This document shows positions 5,350-63,947 of a DNA stretch of 64,000 bases, in pieces. The notes beneath the pieces are model-generated. The model was not told where the DNA came from and did no database searches. It saw nothing but the letters and a program-made list of their open reading frames with translations. The DNA lies in contig JAVLUZ010000143.1 in assembly GCA_036768485.1 (NCBI GenBank), positions 2,847,633 to 2,911,632 of the forward strand, read 5' to 3'. Position numbers and translations under genes: made by a program. The DNA is from Mermis nigrescens (taxonomy: Eukaryota > Nematoda > Enoplea > Mermithida > Mermithidae). The stretch's first letter is position 1, and each line of letters begins with the position of its first letter.

Positions 5350-5680
5350 CTAAAATTAGAATAGACCCTAAACATGTGCATGCCATGGGACTATGGACTT
5401 TGTCATGTGCTTATGAGTCATCATTGGCATGCATTGTGAACTAAAAATCGAACCTATGATGACTCATCGTCTGCGAGTCAACGTGCAGTGAGCTGATCAT
5501 CTGAACTAAAATTAGAACAGGCCCTTAAAATGTAGCATGCTATGGGACTATGGACTTTGTCACATGCTTATGACTCATCATCTGCGTGCATTGTGAACTA
5601 AAAATAAAGCAGGTCGGTGCTTTGCGCCCATACTTTAATGTGTAGTGAGCTGATGATCTGAACCAAAATTAGAATAGGCC
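5350..5680. repeat. Tandem repeat upstream of Polinton A PolB
   Basis: Two full diverged units and the start of a third begin at 5350, 5506 and 5664 (period about 156-158 bp), each starting with CTAAAATTAGAA(T/C)AG and containing CATG(C)CATGGGACTATGGAC-type sequence. The placement matches the AAAATTAGCATAC repeats upstream of PolB in Polinton B (16690-17430). Confidence 0.65.
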
Positions 5681-6112: not shown

Positions 6113-7400
6113 CTATTTCAATGAACTAAGTGAGTCATGAGCGGATTGTGAATATGAGACAATCTGAGCTGTCTCGGAAGTTGGCAATTCGATGATACGA
6201 TATGGACCCACTTGCTTAGGAGCAAGTTTGCCTTGGTTCGACGGAATAACTGCTTTGTTATTCAGATAAACAATATCGTTAACCGAAAAGGTTGTTTCGG
6301 AAACATTTTTATCATATTGTCGCTTATGATGCATACACACTTTCGCTAAATTAGTGGCTGCAGCCTCATGTAAGTCCCGTAGGGAGTGAACTAGGCTGGC
6401 TAAGTACGCTTCAACTTGGTTAGGCGATTCAGGGTCAAGGGTTAAATCATTCAAGATTTGAATATCTATCGGAAAAGATGGCTCTCGACTGTAAAGTAGA
6501 GACAAGTGGCGATAAATTTGTCGACGGCTTGAGGCGTTGCTGGATAGGCAAACAACGCAAATGGGTGATACTGTTCCCAATCATATTGGTCATGAGCACT
6601 TAGCTTCGATAAACAGTCAACCAACATTCGATTATAACGCTCAACTAGACCATCACATTGGGGATGGCATGGTGTTGTAAAAATTTTCTGAATATGCAAG
6701 ATTTTGCATATCTCAGAGACTAACGTTGATGTAAAATTGGATCCTTGATCTGTCAAAAAAGCGTCTAGGCACTCCGTGTCTAGGTATGATTTCACGTAGC
6801 AAAAGATTTGCAATCGTAGTAGCTTTTATGTCCGAAACAGGAAATGCTTCTACATATTCCGTGAAATAGTCCATAGAAAACTACAACTTGGTCATTTCCA
6901 CAGATAGATTTTTGGCATGTGAAGACAGTCACACGATGAGATCAAAAGGAGCGTTAACTTCAATCGATTTTAGGGGTATCGATGCTGGGATTGAGTGAAA
7001 ATCTTACGTTGCAGACATGTATGACAATTTTTACACCATGCAATGACATCGTTTTCCATTCTTGGCCACCAATATCTCATCTGGATATTGGGCAAAATTT
7101 TCGGGCTGAGAAATGAGCACCAAAAATAGAATCATGAAATTTTGATAGGATAAAACGACATAGGGATTTAGGTATGTTGAGCTGATGGATGACTTGGGGG
7201 CTACGTTTGGGTTGAAAGCGTCAAAAAAGTAGATCTTGGCTGATGAAAAATTCATCTCAATACTTCTTCTCGGAAAGATCATCGAGGGAGTCACGAATTT
7301 TGACGATTTTGGGATCAAGTCGTTGCTCTGCCAACAGTTTAGCTGGCGTTTGGATTTCTGCTTTTTCTGCATCTGTCAGCATATTTCTTTCATAATATAC
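6113..7400 (-). pseudogene. Retrotransposon integrase (gypsy type), fragmented
   Basis: The 3' part of pol. The fragment 6813-6113 (two overlapping frames) shows an integrase catalytic core: DQGSNF followed by TTPCHPQCDGLVERYNRML, the usual D...HPQ.DG..ER.N block. A C-terminal region with LNNKAV and KLAPKQVGPYRI resembles the GPY-type C-terminal fold. The N-terminal zinc-finger part near 7.0-7.4 kb is degenerate. Several frame changes and stops interrupt it, so it is inactive as read. Confidence 0.8.
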
Positions 7401-7607
7401 CGGTGGTACATTTCTATTCGCTTTTGACGTAGTTGGTATGTCAGGCGGATTATCATCCTCTTCCGACTCGGATTTCTCGGATTATAGATTGGCTAAGTTC
7501 ACAACTGCTTTTTCTTTCAGCTTTTGTACTTTCGCTCATTTTCATCATATTTGGGGTGACGCAAAAGTAAATTGGCGGCACAATTATAAGCTTACCGGGG
7601 ACATACA

Positions 7608-8086
7608 CTATTTTATATGTGTATTCTTGAAGCTTGAGTCCCCATCTTCGAAGAAGACTAGACGGGTCTTTGACGTTGACAAGCCATGTAAAGCTTTGTG
7701 GTCGGTTTCAACCACGAACTTGGTACTGTAGAGATAGTGACAATAGTATTTAATCGCCCACACAATGGCTAGAGCTTCTTTCTCTGATGTGGCGTAATTG
7801 CACTCAGCTGAATTCAAGACTCAGCTTGCATAGCTGAGTATGAAGCAATTACCCAACGGCAGATGCTTTTGGGTGAGAATCGCACCTAAAGCATAGTTGC
7901 TGGCATCAGTTTTCAAGATAAACTGATGTTTGTCGTCAAATTTTGGCAATTGAATTGTAGGATTGGCGGAGAAGTGAAAGCATCCTTGATTTTTCCAAAA
8001 GCTTCTTGATGCTTTTCAGTCCAAACAAAAGGTATATCTTTTCGCAATAGCATGAAAAGTGGCTTAGCTACTTTTGCGAGATCCTT
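7608..8086 (-). pseudogene. Retrotransposon RT thumb / RNase H fragment
   Basis: Minus-strand reading resumes immediately after the Polinton with KDLAKVAKPLFMLL and VWTEKHQEAFGKIK, the connection between RT and RNase H in gypsy pol. It continues with NYATSEKEALAIVWAIKYY and FVVETDHKAL, diagnostic of gypsy RNase H. The upstream half (FLGLVHWFKKFV) lies at 24.43 kb on the far side of the Polinton, so the gene was continuous before that insertion. The frame changes near 7.82-7.9 kb. Confidence 0.85.
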
Positions 8087-8092
8087 TACAAA
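8087..8092. other. Left target-site duplication of Polinton B (TACAAA)
   Basis: TACAAA immediately precedes the terminal AGTAGTTAAGGG and is repeated exactly at 24427-24432, just after CCCTTAACTACT. Six base pairs is the usual Polinton duplication size. Confidence 0.9.
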
Positions 8093-8605
8093 AGTAGTTA
8101 AGGGAGGCAGCCTGGGGCGCAATGGTTAAGCATAGGACACGTTGTAGCATAGGGCGGCCCGGGCACGCCCAAATTGGTGTACTAAAATTTGGTAGACTAA
8201 TAAATAGTTGACTTGAGCGACGCCCAAATTGGTGTACTAAAATTTTGGGAGGTCTAAAGAACCCTAGCGACCCTAATTTGATGTACTAAAAATTTAGTAG
8301 ACTAATTTCTGGCGGACGAAGGTGGGGTAGGATTCGTGTACTAAAAAATAGTTGAGGAGCCTAAATGAGGCCGAAATTCTGGGTGGCCTGTGATGGACCC
8401 CCAAATAACGTGTCCTATGCTCAGTGAGTGGGAACCCTCCTAAGCCTAGCTCAAATGGTGTAAAGTGGGAAGGGGAGAGAATACACCGGTTTGGAATGTA
8501 AAATTCAGGAACTAACGGACTCAGCAGGGATGGCCGGCCCATCCGACCCGAGTTAAACTAAGACTAAACTAATATTAAGTGTATCCGTTTTATTTTTTCA
8601 GGTCG
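8093..8605. repeat. Left terminal inverted repeat of Polinton B
   Basis: Pairs with 23913-24426 in reverse complement over about 513 bp. I estimate about 96% identity by eye, and most differences are single-base indels in homopolymers. It contains several GTACTAAAA / GTAGACTAA words that also recur in the spacer upstream of PolB. A short extra block of similarity (GTTGTTTTCTATGTA) lies just inside, at about 8633-8650. Confidence 0.95.
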
Positions 8606-8723
8606 ATTATCGGATGAAGCGATCGATAATTGTTGTTGTTTTCTATGTACGTGTATTACAATACAACATATGTATGTACATACATAATATTTGCTAAAGG
8701 AATTGTGAAACAGACTATAGCCT

Positions 8724-9020
8724 TTATCCTAGCAGAATTTGATATATGATATGGTCGTTGATACACTTTTCGAAAAAGTTTTCATAAAATTCCTTCGTTT
8801 CATCGTTAAATTCGTGCCAAAACTGGCATAACGATTCAAAATCTCTCATTTTAAGGTAATATTCCAATTCGTTAATAAATGACCGTTTCTCTCGCTTTTG
8901 TCTGTACTCAGGTCTCATTTTCAACCAAAAGTACCTGCCCAACTTTCCTTCTTCCATGTATCCGTACTTTAAAATGTGTGAGACGATGTGCTTGTAAATA
9001 CCTTCTCCTTTTGACGCCAT
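8724..9020 (-). CDS. Hypothetical 98-residue Polinton protein
   Basis: An intact small reading frame next to the left repeat, transcribed outward. The product is rich in aromatic and charged residues (YFWLKMRPEY, YYLKM) with no cysteine cluster, signal peptide or membrane segment. TATTTATA at 9051-9058 reads TATAAATA on the minus strand, 31 nt before the ATG, and forms a divergent promoter with the zinc-ribbon gene at 9108. I do not recognise the family. The perfect promoter spacing supports a real gene. Confidence 0.5.
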   Translation of the reverse strand: MASKGEGIYKHIVSHILKYGYMEEGKLGRYFWLKMRPEYRQKREKRSFINELEYYLKMRDFESLCQFWHEFNDETKEFYENFFEKCINDHIIYQILLG

Positions 9021-9050
9021 TTTGATATATTACATTCTGGGTATCGCGTA

Positions 9051-9058
9051 TATTTATA
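9051..9058 (-). promoter_or_regulatory. TATAAATA box for the 8724-9020 gene
   Basis: Minus-strand TATAAATA 31 nt before the ATG at 9020, placed back to back with the plus-strand box at 9068-9075. Confidence 0.55.
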
Positions 9059-9067: not shown

Positions 9068-9075
9068 TATAAATA
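9068..9075 (+). promoter_or_regulatory. TATAAATA box for the 9108 gene
   Basis: TATAAATACTAGCG lies 33-40 nt before the ATG at 9108. The same 14-base word occurs upstream of the gene at 22451. Confidence 0.6.
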
Positions 9076-9107: not shown

Positions 9108-9491
9108 ATGGAGGAAGTAATGAAAGAGATCCAAAAGCGACCCTTCGCGGAAGTGGAAACTAAAAGGGATGAAGTAATACCAAAAGTAGAGGAAAAGATA
9201 ACCGAAAAAGTAAAAATTGATGAAAAGCAGCAATTTATGGATGAGGACGTAAAACCTTACGGGAGGGCAATTCGACCCCCTATTGAGTTGTGCGGCAAAA
9301 ATCTACAAAGGCCGATGTACACGCTTTTGATTCAGTTATGCAAATACTGTCAAAATCGTAGTTCGACTAGAGATGTGTTTGAAACAAATTCGGGGGTACT
9401 GTACATACATATAGAAATGTGTCCGAGGTGTACCGAATTTAACAGAGCCATGCAAGAAGCAGGCAAAAGAGTCTTGAAACGTTATCCGTAA
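9108..9491 (+). CDS. Zinc-ribbon protein 1 (paralogue of 17498-17809)
   Basis: A 127-residue protein. The first 45 residues are charged and lysine/glutamate rich. The rest contains CKYC and, about 24 residues on, CPRC, flanked by conserved RPMYTLLIQLC and QEAGKRVLKRY blocks. The same pattern (RPMY, QLC, CxxC, MCxxC, QEAG, VLK) is present in the gene at 17498, so the two are paralogues in one element. Two CxxC pairs suggest a single zinc ribbon. The position, divergent from the small gene and upstream of the TBP-like gene, makes a DNA or transcription role plausible, but that is inference. Confidence 0.6.
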   Translation: MEEVMKEIQKRPFAEVETKRDEVIPKVEEKITEKVKIDEKQQFMDEDVKPYGRAIRPPIELCGKNLQRPMYTLLIQLCKYCQNRSSTRDVFETNSGVLYIHIEMCPRCTEFNRAMQEAGKRVLKRYP

Positions 9492-9600
9492 AACTTACTT
9501 ACATATATATCCCTATCTTAAAGCATCCCGTAAAACTTATGCTGCGCGTCTACCATATATACTTACGTACTTAGGTAGGTACCTATGTACAGTACTTAAA
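9492..9600 (+). other. Spacer before the TBP-like gene
   Basis: AT-rich, with ACATATATATCCC and CCATATATAC words that could serve as weak TATA elements for the gene at 9601. No canonical TATAAATA is present. Confidence 0.3.
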
Positions 9601-10305
9601 ATGAAGGTGCAGAATATCGTCAGCAGTGTTGACAGCAAAAAAAGAATCAGTTTACACCGCATTCACAGTGATTATCCTAATGTTAAATACGAACCTCACA
9701 AATTTCCAGGTCTAATTTTTCGTATGACTAACCCAAAATCAACTTTACTGTTTTTCGAGTCTGGAAAAATCGTATGCGTTGGGTCGAAAACGGTTGAAGA
9801 AGCTAAACAGACATTAGAGAAAGGATTAGAAATTATCGATTCAAATACTAATCTCAAAGTCAAAATTCACATGTTTGTCGGTTCATTCAGTTTAAATTCT
9901 CCAATTAATCTATCAGACTTTTACAAAAACGTGGATAGAAAGAGCGAATACGAGCCCGAGATTTTCCCGGGTCTCGTCTACAGAATGAGAAACACTACCG
10001 CAATTTTGTTTTCAAGCGGCAAAATTATTGTAACTGGTGCAAAATACGTGCAACATCTAAATCAAGCTGAACATATCTTAACAACACTACTAAAACAGCA
10101 CGTGCCAAATATACACTTCTGTTCATTTAAGGCCCTTAAAAGGGCCGTTGGGTTAAAAAATTCAATAAAAAGCGTCGCTCGCAAGGGTACGTCATTCTAT
10201 CCAATCGCAATACGTAGCGCATCTTGGCGTCAAAATCGTACGGCATTCGTTCACTCGTGCTCTAGTAATATTAGTGTATCAACTTCACGACCCTACACGA
10301 TATAA
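9601..10305 (+). CDS. TATA-binding protein (TBP) homologue carried by Polinton B
   Basis: A 234-residue intact frame with the two-fold saddle of TBP. Lobe 1 (about residues 3-80) begins VQNIVSSVD, matching the canonical QNIVSTV. Lobe 2 (about 87-168) contains YEPEIFPGLVYRM and SSGKIIVTGAK, nearly the eukaryotic TBP consensus. The four DNA-kinking phenylalanines of TBP correspond to F35, F52, F122 and F137. Lobe 2 is two residues shorter than usual between its pair. The last ~65 residues are a basic extension not found in host TBP. In the family, TBP binds TATA boxes and nucleates polymerase II or III initiation. Here it sits among genes that mostly start just after TATAAATA boxes, so an element-specific initiation factor is likely, though inferred. 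Divergence from host TBP argues against a recent host copy, and there are no introns. Confidence 0.85.
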   Translation: MKVQNIVSSVDSKKRISLHRIHSDYPNVKYEPHKFPGLIFRMTNPKSTLLFFESGKIVCVGSKTVEEAKQTLEKGLEIIDSNTNLKVKIHMFVGSFSLNSPINLSDFYKNVDRKSEYEPEIFPGLVYRMRNTTAILFSSGKIIVTGAKYVQHLNQAEHILTTLLKQHVPNIHFCSFKALKRAVGLKNSIKSVARKGTSFYPIAIRSASWRQNRTAFVHSCSSNISVSTSRPYTI

Positions 10306-10346: not shown

Positions 10347-10354
10347 TATAAATA
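10347..10354 (+). promoter_or_regulatory. TATAAATA box upstream of the F-box gene
   Basis: One of two TATAAATA boxes (the other at 10386-10393) before the ATG at 10412. Just upstream, at 10305-10325, AAAAATTAGTAGACCAATTT resembles words of the terminal repeats. Confidence 0.5.
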
Positions 10355-10411: not shown

Positions 10412-11278
10412 ATGAAGATTTTCAAAATAAAGAAAAAACTTAAATTAAATATGCTACCCCCGGAGCTATTGGTTAAAATATTCAAGTATTTGGACGGGAG
10501 AACGAGACTGAAACTGCGAAGAGTATGTCGAAAATGGTTGGAAATTATAGAAAATTTTAATTTTTGGCCCATTTCTCACAAAATCGTTCTGACAATTTCT
10601 GACGGTAACCTTATTCTCACCACCCCGCTTTTCGTAAAAACAAACCCAACATTTGAGCAAACTATGAGCGTGTTGAAAATCGTCAATCCGGTCGAGTTGA
10701 AAATTTGCGACAAGTTCGATTCGCGTTTCGTCAGAGCTTTCGTTGCCAAAAATTCGACCGCAAAGCAGCTGCTTCTAAACGCGTGTCAACCGGACGATTG
10801 GCCCGAGGCTAAAATATACGAAATAGATATGATAATAATTAAATGGGTGTACTTAAACGAAAAATACGCAAATTTCTTAAAAGTTATGGATGCCGAGAAA
10901 ATAATGTTGAAACGGATTATGCTGGAACAGACTTTTCAGTTTTGTCCTGGAAAAAGATTAAACTATTTCTTAGTTAATTTTCTTACGTGCAACAATAAAA
11001 TGATGTGTCGCACTTTTGTCTTCAATTTATGTAAAACATTAGCAGACAAATCCCAAAAATGTGTTCTAGTGATAAGTATAGGACAATTAGGGTTTTCAAC
11101 GCATTACGATTTTGAAGATTACGTAATTGAGAAAAACATCTCAGTCAATTACTATACATTATACATATGCCGACATAAATACGCAATTTGGAAAAAACAT
11201 ATATTCGATAAAAAGTATATAATATCTATATACGATGTGGATAGGAAGGAAGAATTTTATCCTCAATTTATGTTTTAA
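10412..11278 (+). CDS. F-box protein carried by Polinton B
   Basis: A 288-residue intact frame. Residues about 12-55 match the F-box: LPPELLVKIFKYLD, then RLKLRRVCRKWLEI. In this family the F-box docks on Skp1 of an SCF ubiquitin ligase, and the C-terminal part selects the target. The remaining ~230 residues show no clear LRR, WD40 or ankyrin repeats by eye and may be a lineage-specific substrate domain. The gene is on the same strand as the TBP-like gene, 106 nt downstream, with its own TATAAATA boxes. A role in steering host protein turnover is inference from the domain; F-box genes are known in some large DNA viruses. Confidence 0.8.
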   Translation: MKIFKIKKKLKLNMLPPELLVKIFKYLDGRTRLKLRRVCRKWLEIIENFNFWPISHKIVLTISDGNLILTTPLFVKTNPTFEQTMSVLKIVNPVELKICDKFDSRFVRAFVAKNSTAKQLLLNACQPDDWPEAKIYEIDMIIIKWVYLNEKYANFLKVMDAEKIMLKRIMLEQTFQFCPGKRLNYFLVNFLTCNNKMMCRTFVFNLCKTLADKSQKCVLVISIGQLGFSTHYDFEDYVIEKNISVNYYTLYICRHKYAIWKKHIFDKKYIISIYDVDRKEEFYPQFMF

Positions 11279-11642: not shown

Positions 11643-11954
11643 ACTGCAACGTCGATTTTAATTAAAATAATGAAATACTTTCAGCCATATTCGAGCTGTC
11701 AGCCATATTTGGGCTAAAAAGTCGATTTTTTAATTTTTATTTTCTAATTTTTTTCCGTTGGCATCCAAAATAAATGAAAAACACGATAAAACAAAAATGG
11801 AAATGGAAATTTAAAGGAATGAAAAAACGACAATATTTTAGCTAGAATACGCAAAAACGACTACCAGTTTATATACAACAATGATGCCTTTTACTTATTT
11901 ACGGGTATGCGCTACCGTCCCGGTTTTTACAATTTCTCTAATAAAATAAAAATA

Positions 11955-12284
11955 ATGACGTCTTGTCCGGTCACGCTGTTTTTCGGACAGGTACCGGCCA
12001 GAGGAACGAAATAAACAAAAAACTCAACCCGTGTTTCGACTACCCACCGGCACTTGCTCTTTTCAGGGAGATCCGGCAGGCAGGCGAGAAAAAAACAAAA
12101 TAGTAACCATGACCGTCATCTGAACAAAACAAAATGACGTCTTGTCCAGTCACGCTGTGTTTCAAGACAGGTACTGGCCAGAGGAACGAAATAAACAAAA
12201 ATAAGAACTAAACAAAATGACGTCTTGTCCGGTCACGCTGTGTTTCAAGACAGGTACCGGCCAGAGGAACGAAATAAACAAAAA
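11955..12284. repeat. Three hairpin repeats between convergent genes in Polinton B
   Basis: Copies at 11955-12021, 12134-12201 and 12217-12284, each ATGACGTCTTGTCC...GGTAC(C/T)GGCCAGAGGAACG and ending in AAATAAACAAAAA. Copy 1 has a TGTCCG/CGGACA stem. Copies 2 and 3 have a GTCTTG/CAAGAC stem at the same place, so pairing is kept with different bases. A more degenerate related block lies at 12026-12110. It may serve the 3' ends of the two converging transcripts. Confidence 0.75.
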
Positions 12285-12338: not shown

Positions 12339-15300
12339 TTAAAAACCGAACGGTAGCGTACAATAGTTAGGGTAATAGGCATCTTTTGTCGTACACAACC
12401 CGATAATCCTTCTTACACATGCTAGTTAAAATATTGTGTTCTCCATCCCTTAAAATTTTCTTTTCCACAATTGTCCGCACGTATTCATCACCTAAAGTGA
12501 ATCCAACCACCATTTTTTTCAAATAGTCAAAAGTAATTTCCTGTTTAACAGAATAATTCAAATTGAAACCTTTAGACTTCTGCACCTCGTGCATCATATT
12601 CTTTCCATCGGTCGTGACACGGTAGGCATAATTTTTCGGTCCGCCCGAAACAAATTCGGAAATGTACGCGTTTTTGCCAAACGCTCGCAATTCGTTCGTC
12701 ATATTGCCCAAATACGGCCCTATTGGTACCGTATATTGATCTTCCGGCCTGCTTAAATAAATTACCGAGTCTGTGTCCATACATAGAACTCGGTCCTGCA
12801 ACTTTTCCAAATAGGTATATAATTTCAAGCGCGCCTGACACGTGACATAAGACGCAATAACAGGATTAGTATTATTAAGAGCTTCCAGAAATTCGTCTTC
12901 AACAACATAAGTGCAGCAAATCATATTTTCGCCAATAAACCGCATAGATCTGACTTCTTTAGTAGAATCAAACATTAAATTAGTAAATTCTTTAGGTTCA
13001 GAAATATATTTAATTTGAGACATGTTATTTCTCTGCCCGAATTTACCCCAAAAAGAATTTAGCATTAGTTTAGCGAGCGAGCGCATGCCAGCATTCTTCT
13101 CTATTTTACTAGGATCAAGCGCAATACCTTCAATGCGTTCATAATTAGCAATATAATCAACTTTATCAGTATCAGTCTTACAATTGGAAGGGTATCCGTC
13201 CGCTTGCTGCTTTAAGCGCAAGAACTTATTTATATAATCGGTAAAAAGACCGCCAGTCTTGCTGGTTGGGTCGTACTTAGCCAGATTTGAGTAATGCCAA
13301 ATTTCGTGAATTTTTAAAATTTTATACCCAAGCTCGAGAGCTTTATAAATTTCTAAACTAACCCAAGCCCCCGTAATCGCGCGCTGCGCGTCAGAATGCT
13401 CGCAGTCATCAATTTTATCAATAACGCATTGTTTACATAAAGGAAATAATAACTTGCCGCCATAACGGTAGGGGAGGACCGGGTGGTATAGGCCGCGCGG
13501 GGGATAATCGGTGCATTTAATAATGCCGTTATAAGTTTTTTCCGAAAGTGGGGTGAAGTTTTCCGTAAAAATTTGGGGATGGCCGGTTGGAAATTCCCCG
13601 GTTTTGCAAACCCAGGGGTACAAGCTACAAACATCTACATATTCAATTTTTTTCATTAAGCGCGCAAACGTGCAATAATTTAATAGCATTAGTGCGACCC
13701 CCGTAAAAAGCTTCACGGGGGCCTAATGGCGTAATTAATTCAATATCGTCAAAATATTTTTTCATTTCCCAATTTTCGTTCAATTCCTTTTTTAACTCGC
13801 ATTCCCATTTTTCAATAACGGTATAGCCAAGACTTTGCAAGTACATTTTACGATCAACAGTAGATAAATAAGCTTCTTCAGCAGTACGTTTATCAGCAGT
13901 TAATTTATTACGATCAGACATGCATTTAGTACAACCATGAAAATAACAGCCCTGGAACTCATAAATTGTTTTACCGCAAATACCATCAACTTTATATTTG
14001 CCAATTTTAATTTCGCCACCATTTAATTTATGACGAATATGAATATTTTGACTTTCAGATAATATATTTTAACCATTTTAACGCAATCATTGATTGATTT
14101 TCTTTACTTAAATACCCGCCATGCGGCACAATGCCGATGGTTTGGGGGTTAGGAAATTTTTACGAAAAATGTAATTACAAGCCGAAGCAATAGTAATACT
14201 AACAAGGAAGGGATCAACCCCCGTTTCAGAAATAAAAATTTGTCTAAACTTTAAACAGCAACGAGTTAATATATCAACATCAGATTCGCAGTATTCCATT
14301 AATTCTTTTTGCAAATTAAACGGTTTATTTAACAATTTTTCCTGCTCGTACCAGTTCAAAAACTCAGCGCGCGCCTCTTCCTTCATATTATCGGGGGCAT
14401 AAAAGTCAATATCGGTAAGGCCGCCAGAATAGTTCCAGTTTTCGAGTGTATTGAAAAAATGGGGGAAATACCCTTTTTTTAGTTCCGAAATCCCGAATGT
14501 TTTTGGTAGAGATGATAAAGCCGAGGGGATGAAATTCATGGAGTCAATGACCCGCACCTTTCCCGCTTCCAGCATCAAGATTTGCAGCCCGCGACAAATA
14601 AGTTTAGGATTAATTGTGCCGTGATTTTGAAAATATTGCAATAAAAACTGAGAATCAAAACCGCTAGCATTGTGCGCAAGTGCAGTAGCGCCTTCATTTT
14701 CTTTACTAAATAACCAGTGACAAAACTCGTTTAAGCAGTTTTGACCAGAAAAATAAAATTTATTAAACCCGCATTTAGCGCAATTTCCCAACTCTTCATT
14801 TATACAACTTTCGCAGACTTTATACGCAACACAGCAATTGGGGGTGTGCAAGAAATTTTTATCCCCTTGTTTATTTCGGCCAAACTCTTTGTCCTGACAA
14901 GTTTCAAAATCGAAGAAAATAAAAGTAGGTTTCCGTTTGGGTTCAGAATCGGGGGAATGGGCATCATATAACATTCGTGATTAACTTTATCAACGTACAT
15001 AGAACAAGTAGTACAATAAATTTGACCGCATTTATGATTTTTACCGTTTTTACCCGTTTTAAACAATTGATTACATTTTTTACAGTGACTGACAGTTGAG
15101 CAAACCGACAGCCGAAATTTTTCGCCCTTTTTAAATTTTCTGCCCGTTTTATGATTATTAAAACAACTTTCGCTCATAAACCATCTATTACAATCAGAAC
15201 AATATTTCCAACTATCAAATACGCATTGGGGGGAGCGATTGCAACAAGTGCATGCGCCTCTATTACAAACATGATTTTCAGAATGATCATAACCTTTATC

Positions 15301-16567
15301 GCATTTTTCGCAGTAATAAGACGCGCCGAAGAATGCTGGCATGCGCGTTATTACGTCAAAGTGGTTATGATGAAGATATAAATGAATGATTTTTTCAGAT
15401 TTAGGGCCGGCATAAATTAAAGCATCCATATGCTCTTTAGAATAAATTTTAATTTGAAAATTAGGGGTCAAAAAATTTTGAATTTTAGCTACCTCGTCCA
15501 AACCACAGAGTCCCTTGTGCTCGCCTAGACCCGCAGCTTCCATTAGCTCAACGGCTAATTTCTTCTGCAGGGTCCTCCGACCCTTCTCCCCCTTTCTTAT
15601 ACAATCCCACCTCGGATCCCCATCTAGACGAGCACGAGCAACAACTATGGCCCGGGCTAGGCACAATTTATCCATTTTATTTTCAATTTGAATAAAACAA
15701 CCCCCATTCCCGCAATGGCGGGCAAACCAGGTATCCCAATTAACAATATGTGTTTTTTTACGCATGTTATGGAGTGGTCCGGCTCCCATAGGGGCGTCAA
15801 CAATAATTACGTTCAAAAAAAGCAGATCATTAAAATTAAAATCGCGTTTGGATTGACTCATGCGTTCGACCACACTCAGGATGCGGTCGGCATTCAGGAG
15901 CTGGCGGTGACAGAATGGAATTAAAACTCGGTGGTCGAGAGAGGGATGCATCAGCTCGACCCTGATCATATCCTCGGGAGCACAGCCGTCTAAAATCCGC
16001 TCAAGCGCATGATCGAAAACTGATCGAATGAGACGTCCAAAATCGTGGACCTCATTCGTGCGCTTAAGCCGTAGGCTGTACCCCCGAGCGTCGGTGCCGA
16101 ACTTCCGCACCCTTAAACGATACATCTCTCCCACCTCGTAAAATTCGTATCAAAGACAGGCCACCGCCTATCTGCCCCATGCCTTCATCCCGCTCTCCCA
16201 AGATGGCATTCCAGAACGCTACAGATTCAAATTCGACTCTTTTTAGCCTCTTTTCAACAAATTTCTCAAAAATATATGTCAATACGCTAGGCTCGCCTGA
16301 ATAAAGCTCCAAATCCACCATTCGCTGCAGCACGTCCAGAGTCGGGTCGGGCGCCGCCGCAGTTGAGTCGTTTTCTTCAACCGCAAGTTGACAAATGGCG
16401 GTCGTTAGTGAGGTGTCGCGGCCGAGGTCGATCTATTTTCTCCATATAGCGTTCGTCAAAGCCGGGTTATTAATCCAAATCCGAGAGGTGATAATGTCCT
16501 TTAGCTTCTCGCACAGGCGATTAATGCTCGGGAATTCAAAGTGGTTTTGATTCGGATGATGATTCAT
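12339..16567 (-). pseudogene. polB: Protein-primed family-B DNA polymerase (PolB), frameshifted, Polinton B
   Basis: The central replication gene. In order: a ~140-residue N-terminal extension (from ATG at 16567), the PolB N-terminal domain (about 16.1-15.8 kb), a Cys/His-rich zinc region (15.3-15.0 kb), ExoI FFDFET (about 14.9 kb), ExoII AHNASGFDS, ExoIII YCESDVDIL, Pol DVCSLYP, KLMLNSFWGKFGQRN and MDTDSVI. It ends at 12339 with a tail equivalent to that of Polinton A. Single-base frame changes occur near 16.43, 16.15, 14.95, 14.12-14.06, 13.68 and 12.37 kb. All catalytic motifs are present within the fragments. A TATATAAGG box reads at 16701-16710. The polymerase call is firm; whether the gene is broken in the animal is uncertain because the indels lie largely in homopolymers. 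Confidence 0.92.
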
Positions 16568-17430: not shown

Positions 17431-17497
17431 CACCCTTAAACCCGTGACTTTAATGTTTTAAGCAAAGGTTAAATAGACCAATTTTTGAAGTTTTTTA

Positions 17498-17809
17498 TTG
17501 AATTTTATTGAAAATTGTCAAAAAATCATGGAAGTTGAACAAGTCAAGAAGCCGTGCGGTCAATCCGCCAAGCTACCGATTGAAGTCTGCTCAAAAAACA
17601 TGGCGCGACCCATGTATCCGGTCACGGTTCAGCTCTGCTACTTCTGCCAGAAAGCCAGTTCCGAAAAAGAAGCGTTCCAGACAAATTTCGGCCGTTGGTA
17701 CATAACGATCCAGATGTGTGCGAAATGCTTCGAGTACAATTACGCGGCCCAAGAAGCCGGCAATGCGGTTCTGAAACATTATATGATGCAGCAGCAGCAG
17801 CAAAATTAA
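17498..17809 (+). CDS. Zinc-ribbon protein 2 (paralogue of 9108-9491)
   Basis: A 103-residue frame; a second in-frame Met at 17528 may be the true start. It carries CYFC and CAKC spaced as in the paralogue, with matching RPMYPVTVQLC and AAQEAGNAVLK blocks, and a short glutamine run at the C-terminus. It is GC-richer than its paralogue. AAATAGACCAATTTTTGAAG just upstream resembles the sequence before the F-box gene. It is the first gene of the right arm, before integrase. Function unknown; duplication within one element suggests two stage- or partner-specific versions. Confidence 0.6.
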   Translation: MNFIENCQKIMEVEQVKKPCGQSAKLPIEVCSKNMARPMYPVTVQLCYFCQKASSEKEAFQTNFGRWYITIQMCAKCFEYNYAAQEAGNAVLKHYMMQQQQQN

Positions 17810-17868: not shown

Positions 17869-17876
17869 TATAAATA
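17869..17876 (+). promoter_or_regulatory. TATAAATA box for integrase
   Basis: TATAAATA 30 nt before the integrase ATG at 17906. Confidence 0.55.
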
Positions 17877-17905: not shown

Positions 17906-18949
17906 ATGGACAAGATTTACTATAATCCGAAAGAGGGATATGGGGGTTTAGAACAACTATATAGAAAAGCTAGAGTAAAATATCCAAAAATAAAGCGTTC
18001 TAGTGTGAAAAAATGGTTGGAAAAACAGCCGACGTACACGTTACACAAACCGGCTAGAAAAACATATTCTAGAAATAGGGTTTTAGTAAGCGGAATTGAC
18101 GAACAGTGGCAGGTAGATCTTGCCGATCTTAAATCTTTATCGCAATTCAACGATGATTTCAAATATCTCTTAAATTGTATTGACATTTTTTCTAAATTTG
18201 CATGGTCGGTTCCAGTAAAATCGAAAAATAGTCGAGATATTTTGCAAGCTTTTAAACACATTCTCGATTCGTCGGCTAGGAAACCATATAAACTGCAAGT
18301 CGACGCGGGGTCTGAATTTACTAATAAAGAGTTTCAAAATTATTTAAAAAGTGAGGATATTTTGTTCTTTACGACGAAAAGCGAAATGAAAGCTAGTGTG
18401 ATTGAGCGGTTTAATCGCACGCTAAAGGAAAAAATGTGGCGATTTTTTCAAACAAAAACACTTACACTTACACGGACGTGTTGCCCGACCTGCTGCACAA
18501 CTATAATCATTCCATTCATCGTACTATAGGCACTTTTCCGGCGAACGTGTCTGCAAAAAACGCTTGTGAAATATTAAATAAAGCTTTTCGTCTAAATATC
18601 AAAAATTTTGTATTTAAATTCGAAATTGGGGATAAAGTACGAATAAGTAAAGTGAAAAAGCATTTTGCTAAAGGTTATTGGCCGTCGTGGACCGAGGAAT
18701 TTTTTATCATTACGGATCGTTTTGCGCGAGATCCCCCGTTTATTTACTGAAAGATCAGATGGATGAAAAGTTGGAGGGGTTTTTTATGAACCCGAACTAC
18801 AAAAAATAGAAACCGATCCCGACTCTTTGTACATTATTGAAAAGATAATTAGAACGCGTAAGAGAGGTAAGAAAACGGACTATTTAGTAAAATGTAGAGG
18901 GTACGATGAAAAATTTAATAGTTGGGTTTCGGATATAGTAAACTTATAA
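17906..18949 (+). pseudogene. int: Polinton integrase with C-terminal chromodomain, frameshifted
   Basis: A retroviral-type integrase that inserts the element. The DDE core runs from VSGIDEQWQVDLADL (first Asp), through LQVDAGSEFTN (second Asp), to KASVIERFNRTLK (Glu). The C-terminal part ends in a chromodomain: YIIEKIIRTRKRGKKTDY, LVKCRGY, NSWV, stop at 18947-18949. Three single-base frame changes interrupt it, each in a homopolymer (T-run near 18440, C-run near 18733, T-run near 18782). TATAAATA precedes the start, and the stop codon overlaps the next gene's TATA box. Identity is firm; intactness is uncertain. Confidence 0.93.
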
Positions 18950-18952
18950 ATA
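18945..18952 (+). promoter_or_regulatory. TATAAATA box for the penton gene
   Basis: TATAAATA overlaps the integrase stop codon and lies 29 nt before the ATG at 18982. Confidence 0.6.
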
Positions 18953-18981: not shown

Positions 18982-19728
18982 ATGGACGATTTTAACAGCG
19001 GACCTGGAAGTTTTACGCTAGTTTTTGATTCTTCGGACGTTAATGTTACACAAAAAGACAATGCTTACCTTTTACAATTGAATAAGCCAATAAATTTAGG
19101 CGGAAGCGGTTCGTGGGAAGCCGGAGTTAGACAAATTATTTTAAGATCGAAATTTTCCAGGGATTTACGCGTTAATTATTTCAAACCAAATAAATCGTCT
19201 CAAACGTTCCAAGTAAAGCAACAAAATTTTTTCGACAAACCGAGTAGGATAATAGATGCGGTAAATTATGCAATCCCCTCCAATTTGAACATTCGATTCG
19301 GGTTAGATTCAGAAAATCATGCAATAATAGGACTAGCACCAAACGCACAGATAAAAATTGAATCTAAAGAACTAGCACAATTTTTAGGTATGGAGTTTAA
19401 TAGTTTTTACCCCGACATTAAGAGTTCCGAACCATTCGCGTTCAAAGGCGCTTCTCCCGTCGCATTGCAAAATCCCATTTTTCGGCTGCACGTTGACTTC
19501 GTTTCGCCTCAAATATGGTCGTCACGGCATTTGCAGGCGATGGTAGCGGACGTTTTTCCTGATAACGAATCATATAAAGTTTATAAATACTCGGACGCAA
19601 TATATTATTCTATAATGAAAAGCTATATATCCGCAATTTATCTGTATTTTGCAGACCTGAATAACAAAATTGTAGATTTAGCCGAGCCTTTTCTCATTAC
19701 GTTTCACTTTAGACAATATTTAGCATGA
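18982..19728 (+). CDS. Minor capsid (penton) protein
   Basis: A 248-residue intact frame directly before the major capsid gene. The N-terminus has the beta-rich pattern of Polinton penton proteins: a short lead, hydrophobic strands, INLGGSGSWEAGV (the 'W-E-A' strand), then alternating strands to the end with no membrane segment or Cys cluster. In the family it forms the pentamers at the capsid vertices as a single jelly roll. Its stop overlaps the start of the next ORF (ATGA at 19725-19728). The assignment rests on position, length and fold pattern rather than strong sequence motifs. Confidence 0.75.
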   Translation: MDDFNSGPGSFTLVFDSSDVNVTQKDNAYLLQLNKPINLGGSGSWEAGVRQIILRSKFSRDLRVNYFKPNKSSQTFQVKQQNFFDKPSRIIDAVNYAIPSNLNIRFGLDSENHAIIGLAPNAQIKIESKELAQFLGMEFNSFYPDIKSSEPFAFKGASPVALQNPIFRLHVDFVSPQIWSSRHLQAMVADVFPDNESYKVYKYSDAIYYSIMKSYISAIYLYFADLNNKIVDLAEPFLITFHFRQYLA

Positions 19729-19964
19729 ACGGGTCGTTTTGTTTTTTTCCTCAATGGGGAGGCAGTATTGAAGAATTTATGTTTCGCCCTCCAACATCTA
19801 GGCAAAAAGTCGAGAAAGTTAAAAAGAAGCAAAAAAGGAAGAAAACACCGGTCCCATTATTCCAAAAAGGCGAGGTAGAGGCAAAGCCAAAAAAGACTAA
19901 AAAGTCTATAAATACAAAGAAAATGTCATTAAAAGCGCAATACGCTTTACGAAACTTCAAATAA
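19725..19964 (+). CDS. Small basic protein between penton and capsid genes
   Basis: A 79-residue frame: hydrophobic first 10 residues, then a lysine-rich stretch (about residues 28-70) with KKKQKRKK and KPKKTKKS. It overlaps the penton gene by 4 nt and the capsid gene by one base (TAATG). A short basic protein here could be a DNA-condensing core or internal capsid protein, as in adenoviruses, but this is inference. An internal TATAAATA (19907-19914) and an in-frame ATG at 19924 could also serve downstream expression. Confidence 0.5.
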   Translation: MNGSFCFFPQWGGSIEEFMFRPPTSRQKVEKVKKKQKRKKTPVPLFQKGEVEAKPKKTKKSINTKKMSLKAQYALRNFK

Positions 19965-21241
19965 TGTCTCGTCTAAGTGAGGAATTGGATATTTTTTCAG
20001 GCCCGGCCCTGGAAACTGCCATTTTAGGCGAAAATGAGCTGGAATTTTACCCCATAAACCCCTTAATTAAAGGAGAACCGATTCAGTTTGACATCAACGA
20101 AACCCACGCTCAAATGACAGATCCTGCATTTCTATTGAAAATGAAAGTGAAAGTTACAGAGAAAGATGGCAGTGCTCTTAAAGACGCTGCGCGAGTAGCG
20201 CCTTTAAATTTAGCACTGCACGCAATTTTCAAAGACATTGTTTTAAAAGCCAATGATACTATTTTAAATCAGGCAACAGGAACTTATGGATATAAATCGT
20301 ATATTGAAACTAATTTCACCTATTCTTCGGCCGCAAAAGAGGGAGCTATTGGAGCGCCGCAAATGTATTATAAAGAAACTGCTGGAAAATTTGAAGCGAC
20401 CGTTGCGGGGGTAAATGTTTCTTACGATGAAAGAGTGAAAAAGTTTGCGAAAAGCGTGCAAGTTGAGATGGGCGGTAGGCTTCACTTAGATATTTTAATG
20501 CAAAATAAATTAATCGTGCCAGGAATCAGATTTTCGCTCACGTTTTTTCCCGTCACTGACGAATTGTTCTTACTCTCCGGCACCCAAAATGCGGCTGAAA
20601 AATATGAAATTACAAAGATTAGCATTAAGGTTAGACGCGTTAATCTAAGCAGTCAAGCTATATTATCTATAGAAAAAGCGCTTCAAACAAAACCAGCAAA
20701 GTACCCCGTCAGTCATTCCGTTGTCAGGACGGTGCATATTGCAGTGGGGCTTAGTCAAGTATCCAACATGATTTTACATAACGGGCAACTGCCCAGAGTC
20801 ATAATCCTTACTCTAGTCGCGTCAAACAGCGTTTCTGGAAATTATCAGAGAAATCCGTTCACTTTTTCGTTAAAATCGTGTCTTTCTGCTCAATTAGAAA
20901 TAAATGGGCAATTATATCCCCCTCTTCCGTATACCCCAAAAACGTCTATGATCGAACCTTATTTAAATTTGCTTAGAATCGTTCATAAATTATATTCTGA
21001 TTCTAACAATGACATAAATTTTGACGCTTTTTCAAAAAACGGTTTTGAAGTTTTAGCATTTGATTTGAATCCGTACGAAACGACAGGTTATATGCATAAA
21101 AAGAACGGAGTGGTGAATTTCTCAGCTAGCTGGGATCCTGCTTCGCTAGACGAAAATTATACTCTACTGTCATACTTGCTTTGGGATAATTTAATAAGTA
21201 TAGACGGTCGAAAAAATATTTTTCTCGATTTCGTTCCATAA
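19964..21241 (+). CDS. mcp: Major capsid protein (double jelly roll)
   Basis: A 425-residue intact frame with the layout of Polinton major capsid proteins: an N-terminal strand region (DPAFLLKMKVKV), then VAPLNLALHAIFKDIVLKAN and GYKSYIETNFTYSS, which match the conserved 'N.lH.lF' and 'Y.Y..Y.E..L.Y' features at the start of the first jelly roll. The second half is a further beta-rich domain. In the family, trimers of this protein build the icosahedral shell. The gene is packed: one-base overlap with the ORF before, four bases before the protease ORF. Unlike most large genes in this element it has no frameshift. Confidence 0.88.
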   Translation: MSRLSEELDIFSGPALETAILGENELEFYPINPLIKGEPIQFDINETHAQMTDPAFLLKMKVKVTEKDGSALKDAARVAPLNLALHAIFKDIVLKANDTILNQATGTYGYKSYIETNFTYSSAAKEGAIGAPQMYYKETAGKFEATVAGVNVSYDERVKKFAKSVQVEMGGRLHLDILMQNKLIVPGIRFSLTFFPVTDELFLLSGTQNAAEKYEITKISIKVRRVNLSSQAILSIEKALQTKPAKYPVSHSVVRTVHIAVGLSQVSNMILHNGQLPRVIILTLVASNSVSGNYQRNPFTFSLKSCLSAQLEINGQLYPPLPYTPKTSMIEPYLNLLRIVHKLYSDSNNDINFDAFSKNGFEVLAFDLNPYETTGYMHKKNGVVNFSASWDPASLDENYTLLSYLLWDNLISIDGRKNIFLDFVP

Positions 21242-21245: not shown

Positions 21246-21792
21246 ATGTATTCGAATCAGCTAGATATAATATCAAAAGTGAATTTCACAACTAGAAAAT
21301 TATTTAGAGGAGTGTACGCGTATGATAAAGTCAAGGAAATTAGCGTCAAAAAAGAAAAAAGTTTTATTATCGTTAATACGGGAAGTTCGAATTCCGCCGG
21401 TGCTCACTGGGTGTTGTTTTTCAATAAAATCAACGAAACTCTGTTTATTGACACCTCAGGACGTCAGCCAAAATCTTACGGCGCAAAATTCGAAGAAGCA
21501 TTAAAGTATTACGCGAGCGTTACCAAAAGTATATCGGTCGTTTTGAATAAACCGATTCAGTTCGGAAATATCTTCGTTATGCAGAATATACTGTTTATAT
21601 TTTTCACACAATTTAAGTTTGAATAAAAGCATAAATACTATTCTGAAACCGTTTTCGTATATAAACACGCTAGAAAACGATAAACTGATTCGGCGCTGGT
21701 TCATAAAATTTTTTCATAACAAAACAATACGCCGCTGTGTAGGTCAGAAATGTTTATGTGCTAAAGAATGGAACAAGTCAGCAGCGATATAA
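21246..21792 (+). pseudogene. pro: Adenain-type (Ulp1-like) cysteine protease, one frameshift
   Basis: The maturation protease of the capsid module. The catalytic His is in GAHWVLFF and the Asp/Asn position in TLFIDTSGRQPKSYG. The oxyanion Gln and nucleophile Cys follow in a different frame (SSLCRIYCLYF near 21.57-21.61 kb), so a one-base shift occurs about 21555-21565. In the family the Cys is followed by Gly; here it is Arg. The reading then runs to a stop at 21790-21792, overlapping the ATPase start at 21768. The call is firm; activity as read is doubtful. Confidence 0.85.
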
Positions 21793-22422
21793 ATATTCTT
21801 AGATCGCCCGCGAATTTCGTAATTTCCGGGGCAACCGGGTCTTGGAAAACTTAGCTTGCTCCTAAAATTGTTAGACGAATGGCCTTTCCAACCAAAAAGA
21901 GGAAAAATGATTTATTTTTATAACGTTTGGCAACCTTTATTTGAAGAATTTATCAAAAAATTTCCAGAAATGATTTTCGTTCAAGGTTTATGTCTTGACG
22001 AGATTGAAAACGAGTGGACGGCCAAAAAGGATAAAGTGCATGTGGTTATCTGCGATGACCTCGCAGACAGCGCAGTAAAAAGCGATCAATTTGCTAGACT
22101 TTTTACGGTTTATAGCCATCACAAAAATATTTTAACGTTTTTTATCACACAAAATCCGTTTTTCAAAGGTCCAATGAGTACGACAATAAACAGAAACACT
22201 CATTATTTTATAATTACAAAAACTCCTCATTTAAATGTATTAAATACGCTTAATTCTCAATTATACGGGGGAAACGGACCCGTAAAACCAGCCTACATGC
22301 AGTGTATGAAGGAAAAACCTTACAATTATTTATTGATAGATGTGTTTAACGATGATGTCCGAAATAGGATACGAAACAATATTTTCAAAGATGAATATCC
22401 GTTATGTATATGGCGTTTATAA
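21768..22422 (+). pseudogene. atp: FtsK/A32-type packaging ATPase, one frameshift
   Basis: Pumps DNA into the capsid in this family. The start at 21768 overlaps the protease end. The Walker A region reads GATGSWKT (Trp where Gly is expected) and a one-base insertion right after it (about 21851) shifts the frame. Walker B is VVICDDL, followed by FFITQNPF, typical of the polinton ATPase, and a C-terminal MKEKPYNYLLIDVF block. It ends at the TATA box for the next gene. Identity is firm; the two Walker A changes would disable it if real. Confidence 0.87.
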
Positions 22423-22450: not shown

Positions 22451-22776
22451 ATGTCTTCGACGAAAGCTAAACGCGAAATCGATAAAAGTCGCCCCTACTT
22501 TCAGTTAATAGGCGATAAGAGTATAAATAAAAAGTAAGAAACGTTTTAATTTCACACGCTCCATCGGAATTTTATACGGTTTTAACTCAAATATCGAGGC
22601 ATTTGCTCAACGGAACATTTTGTAAAGCGAATCCCGCATTCTGTAAAAAATACCGAAACGCATTGTACCTTATATCCTTGCCCGAAACGCGTGTTGAAGA
22701 TAAACAGTTGATTATACGGAAAGAATCAACAGATTTAGTTAAGATTTTATTCGAATTATTAGAGAAAGAAACATGA
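22451..22776 (+). pseudogene. Small Polinton protein, one frameshift
   Basis: The start is MSSTKAKREIDKSRPYFQ; the frame shifts near 22535 and continues as SEFYTVLTQISRHLLNG...LVKILFELLEKET to a stop at 22774-22776, which overlaps the next ATG. The total is about 107 residues, helical and charged, with no motif I recognise. The TATAAATA box and tight packing support a real gene. Another in-frame TATAAATA is at 22522-22529. Confidence 0.5.
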
Positions 22777-23195
22777 TAAAAAAGATGTACGTAGTACCGG
22801 CTGAACTGTACGACACCGTTTTTCGCAAGGCCAATATCACCGACGATCCTTTATTACAAGCGCAAGTGGAAGTCGAGAAGGAAAAAGAAGAAATTCTAAA
22901 AGCACCAAAATCAGCAGATCCCGACACCGTTCTAAGGAAATATTCGGACAAGATGCACGAATTGGGTGTTCTAAGCGAGCAGCGAAAGAAACGTCTCTCA
23001 ATTCCAGTTCCCGTAACTTTCGTTAAGCCATCGGCGCCCAAAAAGGAGGTGAAGACGCGTAAAGTAATACAAAAACGTGAGCCAGAAATACTTGAGCATT
23101 TTTATGATTATGAACCCGATGTTATCGATGAAAAAGAAATTAAGGAAGCAATCAAATTAACACCTAAGAAAACTCGATCGAAACTTTCTTATTAA
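22773..23195 (+). CDS. Hypothetical charged protein (Polinton right arm)
   Basis: A 140-residue intact frame starting inside ATGA of the preceding gene. The N-terminus is YVVPAELYDTVF, then a glutamate/lysine-rich coiled-coil-like stretch (about residues 30-65) and a basic/acidic C-terminus. It has no cysteines and no membrane segment. The position between ATPase and the right repeat is where Polintons carry small virion or accessory genes. Family not recognised. Confidence 0.55.
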   Translation: MIKKMYVVPAELYDTVFRKANITDDPLLQAQVEVEKEKEEILKAPKSADPDTVLRKYSDKMHELGVLSEQRKKRLSIPVPVTFVKPSAPKKEVKTRKVIQKREPEILEHFYDYEPDVIDEKEIKEAIKLTPKKTRSKLSY

Positions 23196-23396
23196 CCACA
23201 GTATTAAACTTATTAAATCTACCTTAATGCAATGTCTATCCTGCAGTCATAATCGGCTCAATGAGTCAGACACCTTTCTACTGTGCGTGTCTGGGCATGT
23301 CCCGCTTAAACCCCGCGAGTTTGATGCTTTATGTGAAACATATATAGGCCCCATAATAGCAAAAAACATAAATTTTATCTATAGTTTCATGAAAAT

Positions 23397-23768
23397 ATGA
23401 ATATTAACGAATTCTACACTCTTGACGAGGTTGGTAAACCTATTCATGTTAAGAAATTCAAATGTTTTGGCAAAGTGTACACCCTAAGATTTCTGAAACT
23501 CTATCAATGGATTGACATTAATCGTATTTTGAATTCAATTTTTGACGATGTTATCAAGAGAACATTGCAAGATCATCCTCCCGACTGCATGATCGGTATT
23601 GAAATAAAACATCCGAGTTTACATTCTCCCGTATTAGTTCCATTTGCTCCCGCTCAGAGTATGGATGCGGATCAAGTTATCAGTCTCATTGAACGTGTAT
23701 CTCAGTCAGTGAAAGACTTGTCTTTAAGTGAAACCATGACGTGGAGCGTGACGATTGTTGAAAAGTGA
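23397..23768 (+). CDS. Stand-alone PolB N-terminal-domain protein
   Basis: A 123-residue intact frame beside the right repeat. Its core, YTLRF ... IFDDVIKRTL ... IGIEIKHPSL ... PVLVPFAPAQSM ... QVISLIERVSQS, matches the N-terminal domain of both PolB genes in the window (in Polinton B: SVFDHALERIL, VELMHPSL, LIPFCHRQ, VVERMSQS). The similarity is thus paralogy with a polymerase domain, without the catalytic parts. It has its own start, TATATA upstream and no frameshift. A partner, competitor or terminal-protein-like role in replication initiation is inference. It is separated from 22773-23195 by about 200 nt of plain sequence. Confidence 0.7.
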   Translation: MNINEFYTLDEVGKPIHVKKFKCFGKVYTLRFLKLYQWIDINRILNSIFDDVIKRTLQDHPPDCMIGIEIKHPSLHSPVLVPFAPAQSMDADQVISLIERVSQSVKDLSLSETMTWSVTIVEK

Positions 23769-23912
23769 TTCAATTATGATTTGTTTATTTTTGATGTAAT
23801 GCTCATTATATACATACATATGTAGTATGACTGTGGGCATATACATATGATAACTTTGATACATAGAAAACAACGACATTATCAACATTATCATTCGTTG
23901 CTCCACTGCACA

Positions 23913-24426
23913 CGACCTGAAAAATAAAACGGATACACTTAATATTAGTTTAGTCTTAGTTTAACTCGGGTCGGATGGGCCGGCCATCCCTGCTGAGTCC
24001 GTTAGTTCCTGAATTTTACATTCCAAACCGGTGTATTCTCTCCCCTTCCCACTTTACACCATTTCAGCTAGGCTTGAGGAGGGTTCCCACTCACTGAGCA
24101 TAGGACACGTTATTTGGGGGTCCATCACAGGCCACCCAGAATTTCGGCCTCATTTAGGCTCCTCAACTATTTTTTAGTACACGAATCCTACCCCTACCTT
24201 CGTCCGCCAGAAATTAGTCTACTTAATTTTTAGTACATCAAATTAGGGTCGCTAGGGTTCTTTAGACCTCCCAAAATTTTAGTACACCAATTTAGGGCTC
24301 GCTCAGGGCAACTATTTATTAGTCTACCAAATTTTTAGTACACCAATTTGGGCGTGCCCGGGCCGCCTATGCTACAACGTGTCCTATGCTTAACCATTGC
24401 GCCCCAGGGTCCCACCCTTAACTACT
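23913..24426. repeat. Right terminal inverted repeat of Polinton B
   Basis: Reverse complement of 8093-8605, ending CCCTTAACTACT. A further short match to the left side (TACATAGAAAACAAC) lies just inside, near 23860-23875. Confidence 0.95.
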
Positions 24427-24432
24427 TACAAA
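24427..24432. other. Right target-site duplication of Polinton B (TACAAA)
   Basis: Exact copy of 8087-8092. On the minus strand it lies in codons of the conserved KKFV of the RT thumb, so it pinpoints the insertion. Confidence 0.9.

Positions 24433-50987: not shown

Positions 50988-63947
<12,960 letters not shown>

What the first reader, a model, noticed from the sequence alone, without database searches (positions are those of the whole stretch)
9601..10305. A Polinton that encodes its own TATA-binding protein
The intact 234-residue frame has both TBP lobes, the four DNA-kinking phenylalanine positions (F35, F52, F122, F137) and near-consensus YEPEIFPGLVYRM, plus a basic C-terminal tail. TBP is not part of the standard Polinton gene set I know of. 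A transposon or virus with its own TBP could fire its genes independently of host control of TBP.
Basis: partly seen in the sequence, partly recalled or inferred. Interest (0 to 1): 0.92.

Follow-up and report, generated by a model that had tools for sequence, protein, structure and literature searches.

The report
Polintons carrying their own TATA-binding protein
A virus-like transposon in an animal genome, probably a parasitic nematode's, carries its own version of TBP, the protein that marks where genes start; related elements in the same genome carry it too, and matching TATA boxes stand before many of their genes.

The parts
8093..8649 (+). left terminal inverted repeat of the Polinton, begins AGTAGTT
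   Evidence: 537 identities, 16 mismatches, 18 gap positions against the right repeat; I1-I4
23860..24426 (-). right terminal inverted repeat
8087..8092 (.). target site duplication TACAAA (left)
24427..24432 (.). target site duplication TACAAA (right)
8724..9029 (-). small conserved ORF 'o0' (my label), divergent from the next gene
   Evidence: open frame; conserved beside TBP in many class-A copies
9108..9491 (+). C4 zinc-ribbon-like ORF 'zr1' (my label), 127 aa
   Evidence: no Pfam match above cut-off; paralogue of 17489-17809, 52.6% identical over 78 aa
9601..10305 (+). TATA-binding protein gene; TBP core is about residues 1-166, the rest probably read-through
10412..11278 (+). F-box protein gene
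   Evidence: Pfam F-box-like 1.1e-11, F-box 1.9e-11
12367..16149 (-). family B DNA polymerase gene of the organellar/viral type, broken into several frames
   Evidence: DNA_pol_B_2 1.1e-19 and 3.1e-20 in two pieces
17489..17809 (+). second C4 ORF 'zr2' (my label)
17906..18750 (+). retrovirus-type (rve) integrase gene, frame broken
   Evidence: rve 4.7e-11 in the first piece, 17900-18529; second piece by position only
18982..19728 (+). putative minor capsid / penton-like gene (by position and size only)
   Evidence: no Pfam or PHROGs match
19964..21241 (+). major capsid protein gene (double jelly roll)
21246..21626 (+). adenain-type cysteine protease candidate (below Pfam cut-off)
   Evidence: Peptidase_C5 E 0.0014, 18.8 bits, cut-off 21.3
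21823..22422 (+). putative A32-like packaging ATPase gene (weak)
   Evidence: Pox_A32 E 0.15, below cut-off
22743..23195 (+). ORF 'o1', unknown
23385..23768 (+). ORF 'o2', paralogue of the N-terminal part of the PolB gene
   Evidence: 35.6% identity over 118 aa, E 5e-24
9068..9075 (+). TATAAATA, 40 bp before zr1
9051..9058 (-). TATAAATA on the minus strand, about 38 bp before o0
10347..10354 (+). TATAAATA, 65 bp before the F-box ATG (another at 10386, 26 bp before)
17869..17876 (+). TATAAATA, 37 bp before integrase
18945..18952 (+). TATAAATA, 37 bp before the putative minor capsid gene
19907..19914 (+). TATAAATA, 57 bp before the MCP ATG
21788..21795 (+). TATAAATA, 35 bp before the first codon of the ATPase open frame (not an ATG; the ATG that chose has no box at -80 to -20)
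9556..9561 (+). TATATA, 45 bp before the TBP ATG (TBP itself has TATATA, not TATAAATA)

Best explanation
The element is a Polinton (Maverick) whose lineage took up a eukaryote-type TBP long ago and kept it as a working gene. The element-encoded TBP most likely binds the TATAAATA boxes that stand before many element genes, bends them with its four phenylalanines, and recruits host TFIIB and host RNA polymerase II, so that element promoters can be started without waiting for TFIID. Shown: TBP gene inside the element; TBP fold (predicted); many copies and several classes across the genome; purifying selection; TATA boxes before element genes beyond chance; host TBP is a separate, very different gene. 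Inferred: DNA binding, TFIIB recruitment (from invariant contact residues), TFIID independence, and benefit to the element.
For: TBP identity. Element boundaries. At least one further element gene beside TBP in 20 of 20 fetched 10-kb stretches; hallmark genes (PolB, integrase, capsid, ATPase or protease) in 15 of 20, though in L024 the integrase is only 51% identical and may belong to a neighbour. 402 distinct TBP places on 189 contigs; 92 of the 150 best integrase places have a TBP within 5 kb, chance 1.15. 134 of 150 class-B places have no stop in the match. dN/dS 0.13-0.16 (window against 4 class-A relatives) and 0.11-0.18 (8 pairs between class-B subfamilies). TATAAATA 20-80 bp upstream in 33 of 90 distinct starts, against 5 and 4 of 90 in the two windows further upstream and a shuffle mean of 0.57, maximum 4 in 200. 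In the window, 12 sites in the 16,334-bp element against 6 in the other 47,666 bp. The glutamates aligned with human E284 and E286 (TFIIB contacts, recalled) are kept in 15 of 15 Polinton TBPs; F197, F214, F288 in 15 of 15 and F305 in 13 of 15. Precedent: an algal giant virus, CpV-BQ1, is said to use its own TBP and TFIIBs with the host's RNA polymerase (PMC12085832, passages).
Against: No binding, expression or promoter data. Host TBP could read the same TATA boxes, so the boxes alone do not show that the element TBP is used. 57 of 90 starts had no TATAAATA at -80 to -20; some of these are internal fragments of broken genes, others may be real (in the window PolB, zr2, protease and o1 had no TATA[AT]A in 150 bp). 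No host-gene or TBP-free Polinton control for the TATA count. No second species was found with a TBP-bearing Polinton. 58 of 150 integrase places had no listed TBP within 5 kb (the TBP lists are truncated at 150). dN/dS rests on few copies, and class C is saturated.
Confidence: 0.62

Rival explanations
1. The element TBP is mainly a weapon against host transcription: it competes with host TBP for TFIIB or promoters, or ties up TBP regulators, to favour the element.
For: Keeps the TFIIB-contact glutamates and the DNA-kinking phenylalanines, while helix H2 is poorly conserved (0-8 of 20-23 identical to human, host TBP 19 of 23), which could free it from host regulators.
Against: TATA boxes before many element genes point to a use on the element's own promoters. 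The 3 archaeal TBPs compared show similarly poor H2 identity (4-6 of 23), and the residue aligned with human K236 is still K in 10 of 15, so this is not a clear sign.
Confidence: 0.2
2. It is an architectural DNA-bending protein for replication, packaging or integration at the termini rather than a transcription factor.
For: TBP bends DNA; in the window the gene lies about 1.5 kb from one terminus.
Against: In classes B, C and E the gene lies near ATPase, integrase, protease or capsid genes instead. The 12 TATAAATA sites in the element lie between 9051 and 22529, none inside the terminal repeats.
Confidence: 0.08
3. A recent processed copy of host TBP that landed in the element by chance.
For: The frame has no introns.
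Against: 38% identity to host TBP; host TBP is 87% and 76% identical to human in its two matched exons; hundreds of copies in several divergent classes (tree); purifying selection.
Confidence: 0.01
4. A passenger gene that is replicated with the element but does nothing.
For: The window copy sits in an element whose PolB and integrase frames are broken.
Against: dN/dS 0.11-0.18 between subfamilies, invariant functional residues, presence in several element classes with different gene orders.
Confidence: 0.03

Closest known systems
Polinton / Maverick transposons (Polintoviricetes)
   Same: PolB of the viral type, rve integrase, double-jelly-roll capsid protein, protease and ATPase candidates, terminal inverted repeats, 6-bp TSD, 16 kb
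   Different: Carries a TBP (and an F-box gene). The standard Polinton gene set, as I recall it and as PMC11071308 lists part of it (passages), has no TBP
Mirusvirus TBP (Mirusviricota)
   Same: A DNA virus of eukaryotes with its own TBP; in 59% of mirusvirus genomes, per PMC10132985 (passages)
   Different: Mirusvirus genomes reach over 430 kb and their capsid is HK97-fold (passage of PMC10675990); this element is 16 kb with a double-jelly-roll capsid
Giant virus TBPs (e.g. Heterosigma akashiwo virus, Terrestrivirus, Megavirus chilensis, CpV-BQ1; asfarvirus B263R homologues)
   Same: TBP fold; virus-encoded TBP, in CpV-BQ1 said to act with host RNA polymerase (PMC12085832, passages)
   Different: The 50 viral matches listed are 8-21% identical in structural alignments. 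Megavirus chilensis TBP accompanies viral RNA polymerase subunits and TFIIB (PMC11464507, passages) and CpV-BQ1 has TFIIBs; I saw neither among the Polinton ORFs scanned with Pfam (not every ORF was scanned). PMC10132985 counts its TBP cluster in 0% of Nucleocytoviricota, so these are divergent proteins
Host (nematode-like) TBP and TRF2/TBPL1
   Same: Two-lobed TBP fold; TBP has the DNA-kinking phenylalanines
   Different: 38% identity to host TBP, 32% to TBPL1 (recalled sequence); outside the animal TBP group in the tree

Membership tests
Polinton / Maverick | viral-type family B DNA polymerase | tested here: met
   DNA_pol_B_2 1.1e-19 and 3.1e-20; broken frames
Polinton / Maverick | retrovirus-type integrase | tested here: met
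   rve 4.7e-11
Polinton / Maverick | double-jelly-roll major capsid protein | tested here: met
Polinton / Maverick | adenain-type protease | tested here: inconclusive
   Peptidase_C5 E 0.0014, below cut-off
Polinton / Maverick | A32-like packaging ATPase | tested here: inconclusive
   Pox_A32 E 0.15
Polinton / Maverick | long terminal inverted repeats and 6-bp target duplication | tested here: met
   557/567-bp repeats, TACAAA on both sides
TBP | match to the TBP profile with two lobes | tested here: met
   PF00352 E 2.1e-48, two stretches
TBP | saddle fold | tested here: met
TBP | four intercalating phenylalanines | tested here: met
   all four in the window protein; 13 of 15 Polinton TBPs keep all four
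TBP | binds and bends TATA DNA, recruits TFIIB | not testable with these tools
   only residue conservation
Mirusvirus TBP | groups with mirusvirus TBPs in a tree | not tested
   No sequence labelled mirusvirus was at hand; some unlabelled viral rows may be
Host TBP copy | near identity to host TBP | tested here: not met
   38%
TRF2 / TBPL1 | groups with TBPL1 | tested here: not met
   TBPL1 (recalled) joins four viral rows weakly (80/48), away from the Polinton rows; it is a long branch

The most novel reading that the evidence does not exclude
A lineage of Polinton viruses runs its own promoter system: element-encoded TBPs, in some loci two unlike ones side by side, dedicated to TATAAATA boxes before their genes and working with host TFIIB and RNA polymerase II but outside TFIID. 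To my knowledge (recalled) it would be the smallest DNA virus genome, 16 kb, with its own TBP.
Probability: 0.4. Interest if true: 0.9.

Novelty: new variant of a known kind. Interest (0 to 1): 0.78.

Why it matters
TBP is a basal factor that small DNA viruses, as far as I recall, borrow from the host. A 16-kb virus-like transposon that brings its own, conserved under selection and spread through hundreds of copies, with matching TATA boxes, gives a natural small system for asking what a TBP needs to start RNA polymerase II transcription without TFIID, and how a transposon escapes or overrides host promoter control. It adds a small kind of eukaryotic DNA virus to the large ones (giant viruses, mirusviruses) that have their own TBP.

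Tried and rejected
Processed host copy: rejected. Archaeal origin or contamination: the hits named (120 listed of 154, 28-42% identical) are archaeal where they bear an organism's name, but the trees put all 15 Polinton TBPs on the eukaryotic side (98/95, 99/98); the make-up of the database and its word filter may explain the hit list. One or two captures: classes A, B, D, E form one clade (96/95; 92/88), class C falls apart from them, but one origin is not rejected (AU p 0.31). Basic tail as a domain: rejected.

Searches that found nothing: viral contigs with the TBP, the capsid protein, PolB and two alignments. One search found 15 viral TBPs, 27-37% identical; none of the other element proteins matched in those loci. 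Protein database with the Polinton TBP profile: 4216 hits among 7999 candidates scored, best 120 listed; the 9 that I read look archaeal or eukaryotic, none Polinton-like. PHROGs and PADLOC: no match for TBP. Paper searches for Polinton/Maverick with TBP terms: the six different papers were looked at in passages and none places a TBP in a Polinton; Cymbomonas elements with TBP genes are of putative mirusvirus origin. One search was swamped by TATA papers and says little. Jeong et al. 2023 on nematode polintons (seen only in a reference list) is not held; work on Caenorhabditis Mavericks is recalled, not looked up. So 'not reported' is limited to this open-access library.

The Pfam PF00352 search of the own genome with control genomes did not complete. 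No control for TATA boxes in host genes or TBP-free Polintons.

Full report

Not the host gene. Human TBP core finds the host's TBP as two exons, C73:2488105-2488362 (87% identity) and C73:2491018-2491290 (76%). The window TBP is 38% identical to it, and the host TBP groups with that of the nematode Aphelenchoides (99/94). The assembly, 523,963,438 bases in 860 contigs, is close to the 524,220,005 bp in 867 scaffolds of Mermis nigrescens (PMC10989877, passages); that this is the host is my inference. The main text of that paper has no occurrence of Polinton, Maverick or TATA.

A family, not a single case. Three searches of the genome list 150, 150 and 150 places, the scored best of 1893, 1702 and 2154 candidates. 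With the two host exons dropped and places within 600 bp merged they make 402 distinct places on 189 contigs. Of the 150 best integrase places (of 2683 candidates) 92 have a TBP within 5 kb, 1.15 expected, and 58 have none listed. Of 20 fetched 10-kb stretches, chosen by me from the first list to span identities, 20 carry another element gene beside TBP; 15 carry a hallmark gene, while L029, L032, L033, L034 and L037 do not within the stretch. In L024 the integrase is 51% identical and may belong to a neighbour. Five further 6-kb stretches and four 3.5-kb loci show other classes: TBP beside protease and capsid matches (L051 has capsid, L054 both; L046-L048 protease), beside an F-box gene and a C4 ORF (L050), and between two capsid-protease-ATPase blocks (L053); in L049 and L052 the TBP is the only match to the window's proteins. 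L035 and L036 hold two unlike TBPs about 2.2 kb apart, either one composite element or a nested pair.

Selection and descent. Nei-Gojobori dN/dS is 0.13-0.16 for the window against four class-A relatives and 0.11-0.18 in 8 pairs between class-B subfamilies (dS 0.9-2.0, partly near saturation); close pairs give 0.25-0.65 on few changes, one pair has no synonymous change, and class C is saturated at synonymous sites. All 15 Polinton TBPs fall on the eukaryotic side of the tree (98/95; 99/98), outside the animal TBPs. Classes A, B, D and E form one clade (96/95); class C is apart, but a single origin is not rejected (p 0.31), nor is a group of Polinton plus host and human TBP (p 0.18).

Surfaces. 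Across 15 Polinton TBPs the residues aligned with human F197, F214, F288, E284 and E286 never vary; F305 is kept in 13 (S in L035's class-A copy, Y in L050). Helix H2, the side used by TFIIA, NC2 and Mot1 (recalled), is 0-8 of 20-23 identical to human, against 15-22 of 32-34 in the N-lobe strands; the three archaeal TBPs compared give 4-6 of 23, and K236 itself is kept in 10 of 15. This fits a TBP held to DNA and TFIIB but less to the eukaryotic regulators; it is an inference.

TATA boxes. In the window element TATAAATA stands before the o0, zr1, F-box, integrase, minor-capsid and MCP starts and before the ATPase open frame; TBP and o2 have TATATA; PolB, zr2, protease and o1 have neither within 150 bp. 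Over 158 gene starts in the element and 29 loci, 90 remain after near-identical upstreams are dropped; 33 have TATAAATA at -80 to -20, against 5 and 4 in the two windows further upstream; shuffles give 0.57 on average and at most 4. The looser TATA[AT]A gives 43 of 90 against a shuffle mean of 8.9, maximum 16. Starts were picked by a rule and include internal fragments, so 33 of 90 is neither a clean rate nor a count of promoters. In the window, 12 sites fall in the 16,334-bp element and 6 in the remaining 47,666 bp.

The tail. In 10 of 15 distinct class-A copies the frame ends 16-17 residues after TGAK; in L037 it runs 29, in the window and three others 39-85. I read the tail as read-through.

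Mechanism. The element carries no RNA polymerase that I recognised among the ORFs scanned, so host RNA polymerase II is the likely partner. An algal giant virus, CpV-BQ1, is described as redirecting the host polymerase with its own TBP and TFIIBs (PMC12085832, passages), a precedent for the route proposed here; the Polinton would have to use host TFIIB.

Known and new. Giant viruses have TBPs and 59% of mirusvirus genomes do (PMC10132985, passages). I found none in print for Polintons, within an open-access library that lacks the main paper on nematode polintons. I call it a new variant of a known kind.

Noticed in passing
window 4-5386 (-): A second, older Polinton fragment with PolB pieces (31-57% identical to the element's) and an integrase piece cut by the window's edge. 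A TBP place lies 7.2 kb left of the window (C49:2840389), perhaps its own.
   Followed up: partly
L035:1992-2504 and 4683-5330; L036:4767-5414 and 7593-8108: Two unlike TBPs (class A and class B) about 2.2 kb apart on opposite strands; one composite element or nested elements.
   Followed up: partly
window 10412-11278; L024-L031, L034-L037, L050, L053: An F-box gene accompanies TBP in several element classes, as if the two belong to one accessory module; it was not matched in L032, L033 or L038-L043.
   Followed up: no
window 9108-9491 and 17489-17809: Two paralogous C4 zinc-ribbon-like ORFs in one element, 52.6% identical; whether they are transcription partners of TBP is open.
   Followed up: no
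window 23385-23768 and 15796-16146: A free-standing ORF is a paralogue of the N-terminal part of the PolB gene (35.6%, E 5e-24).
   Followed up: no
G000 C51:3875928, 3884310, 3892695: Three TBP places with the same score, about 8.38 kb apart: looks like a head-to-tail array of element pieces (o1 recurs at the same step in L032).
   Followed up: no
window 6113-6825 (-) and 24753-28007 (-): Ty3/Gypsy-like pieces on the same strand on both sides: the Polinton seems to have landed inside a retrotransposon (reading of ORFs, not tested).
   Followed up: no
window 11943-12284: Three copies of an 80-nt repeat between the F-box gene and PolB.
   Followed up: no
window 49503-49575 (+) and 55928-56000 (-): Two tRNA genes with identical scores on opposite strands.
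   Followed up: no
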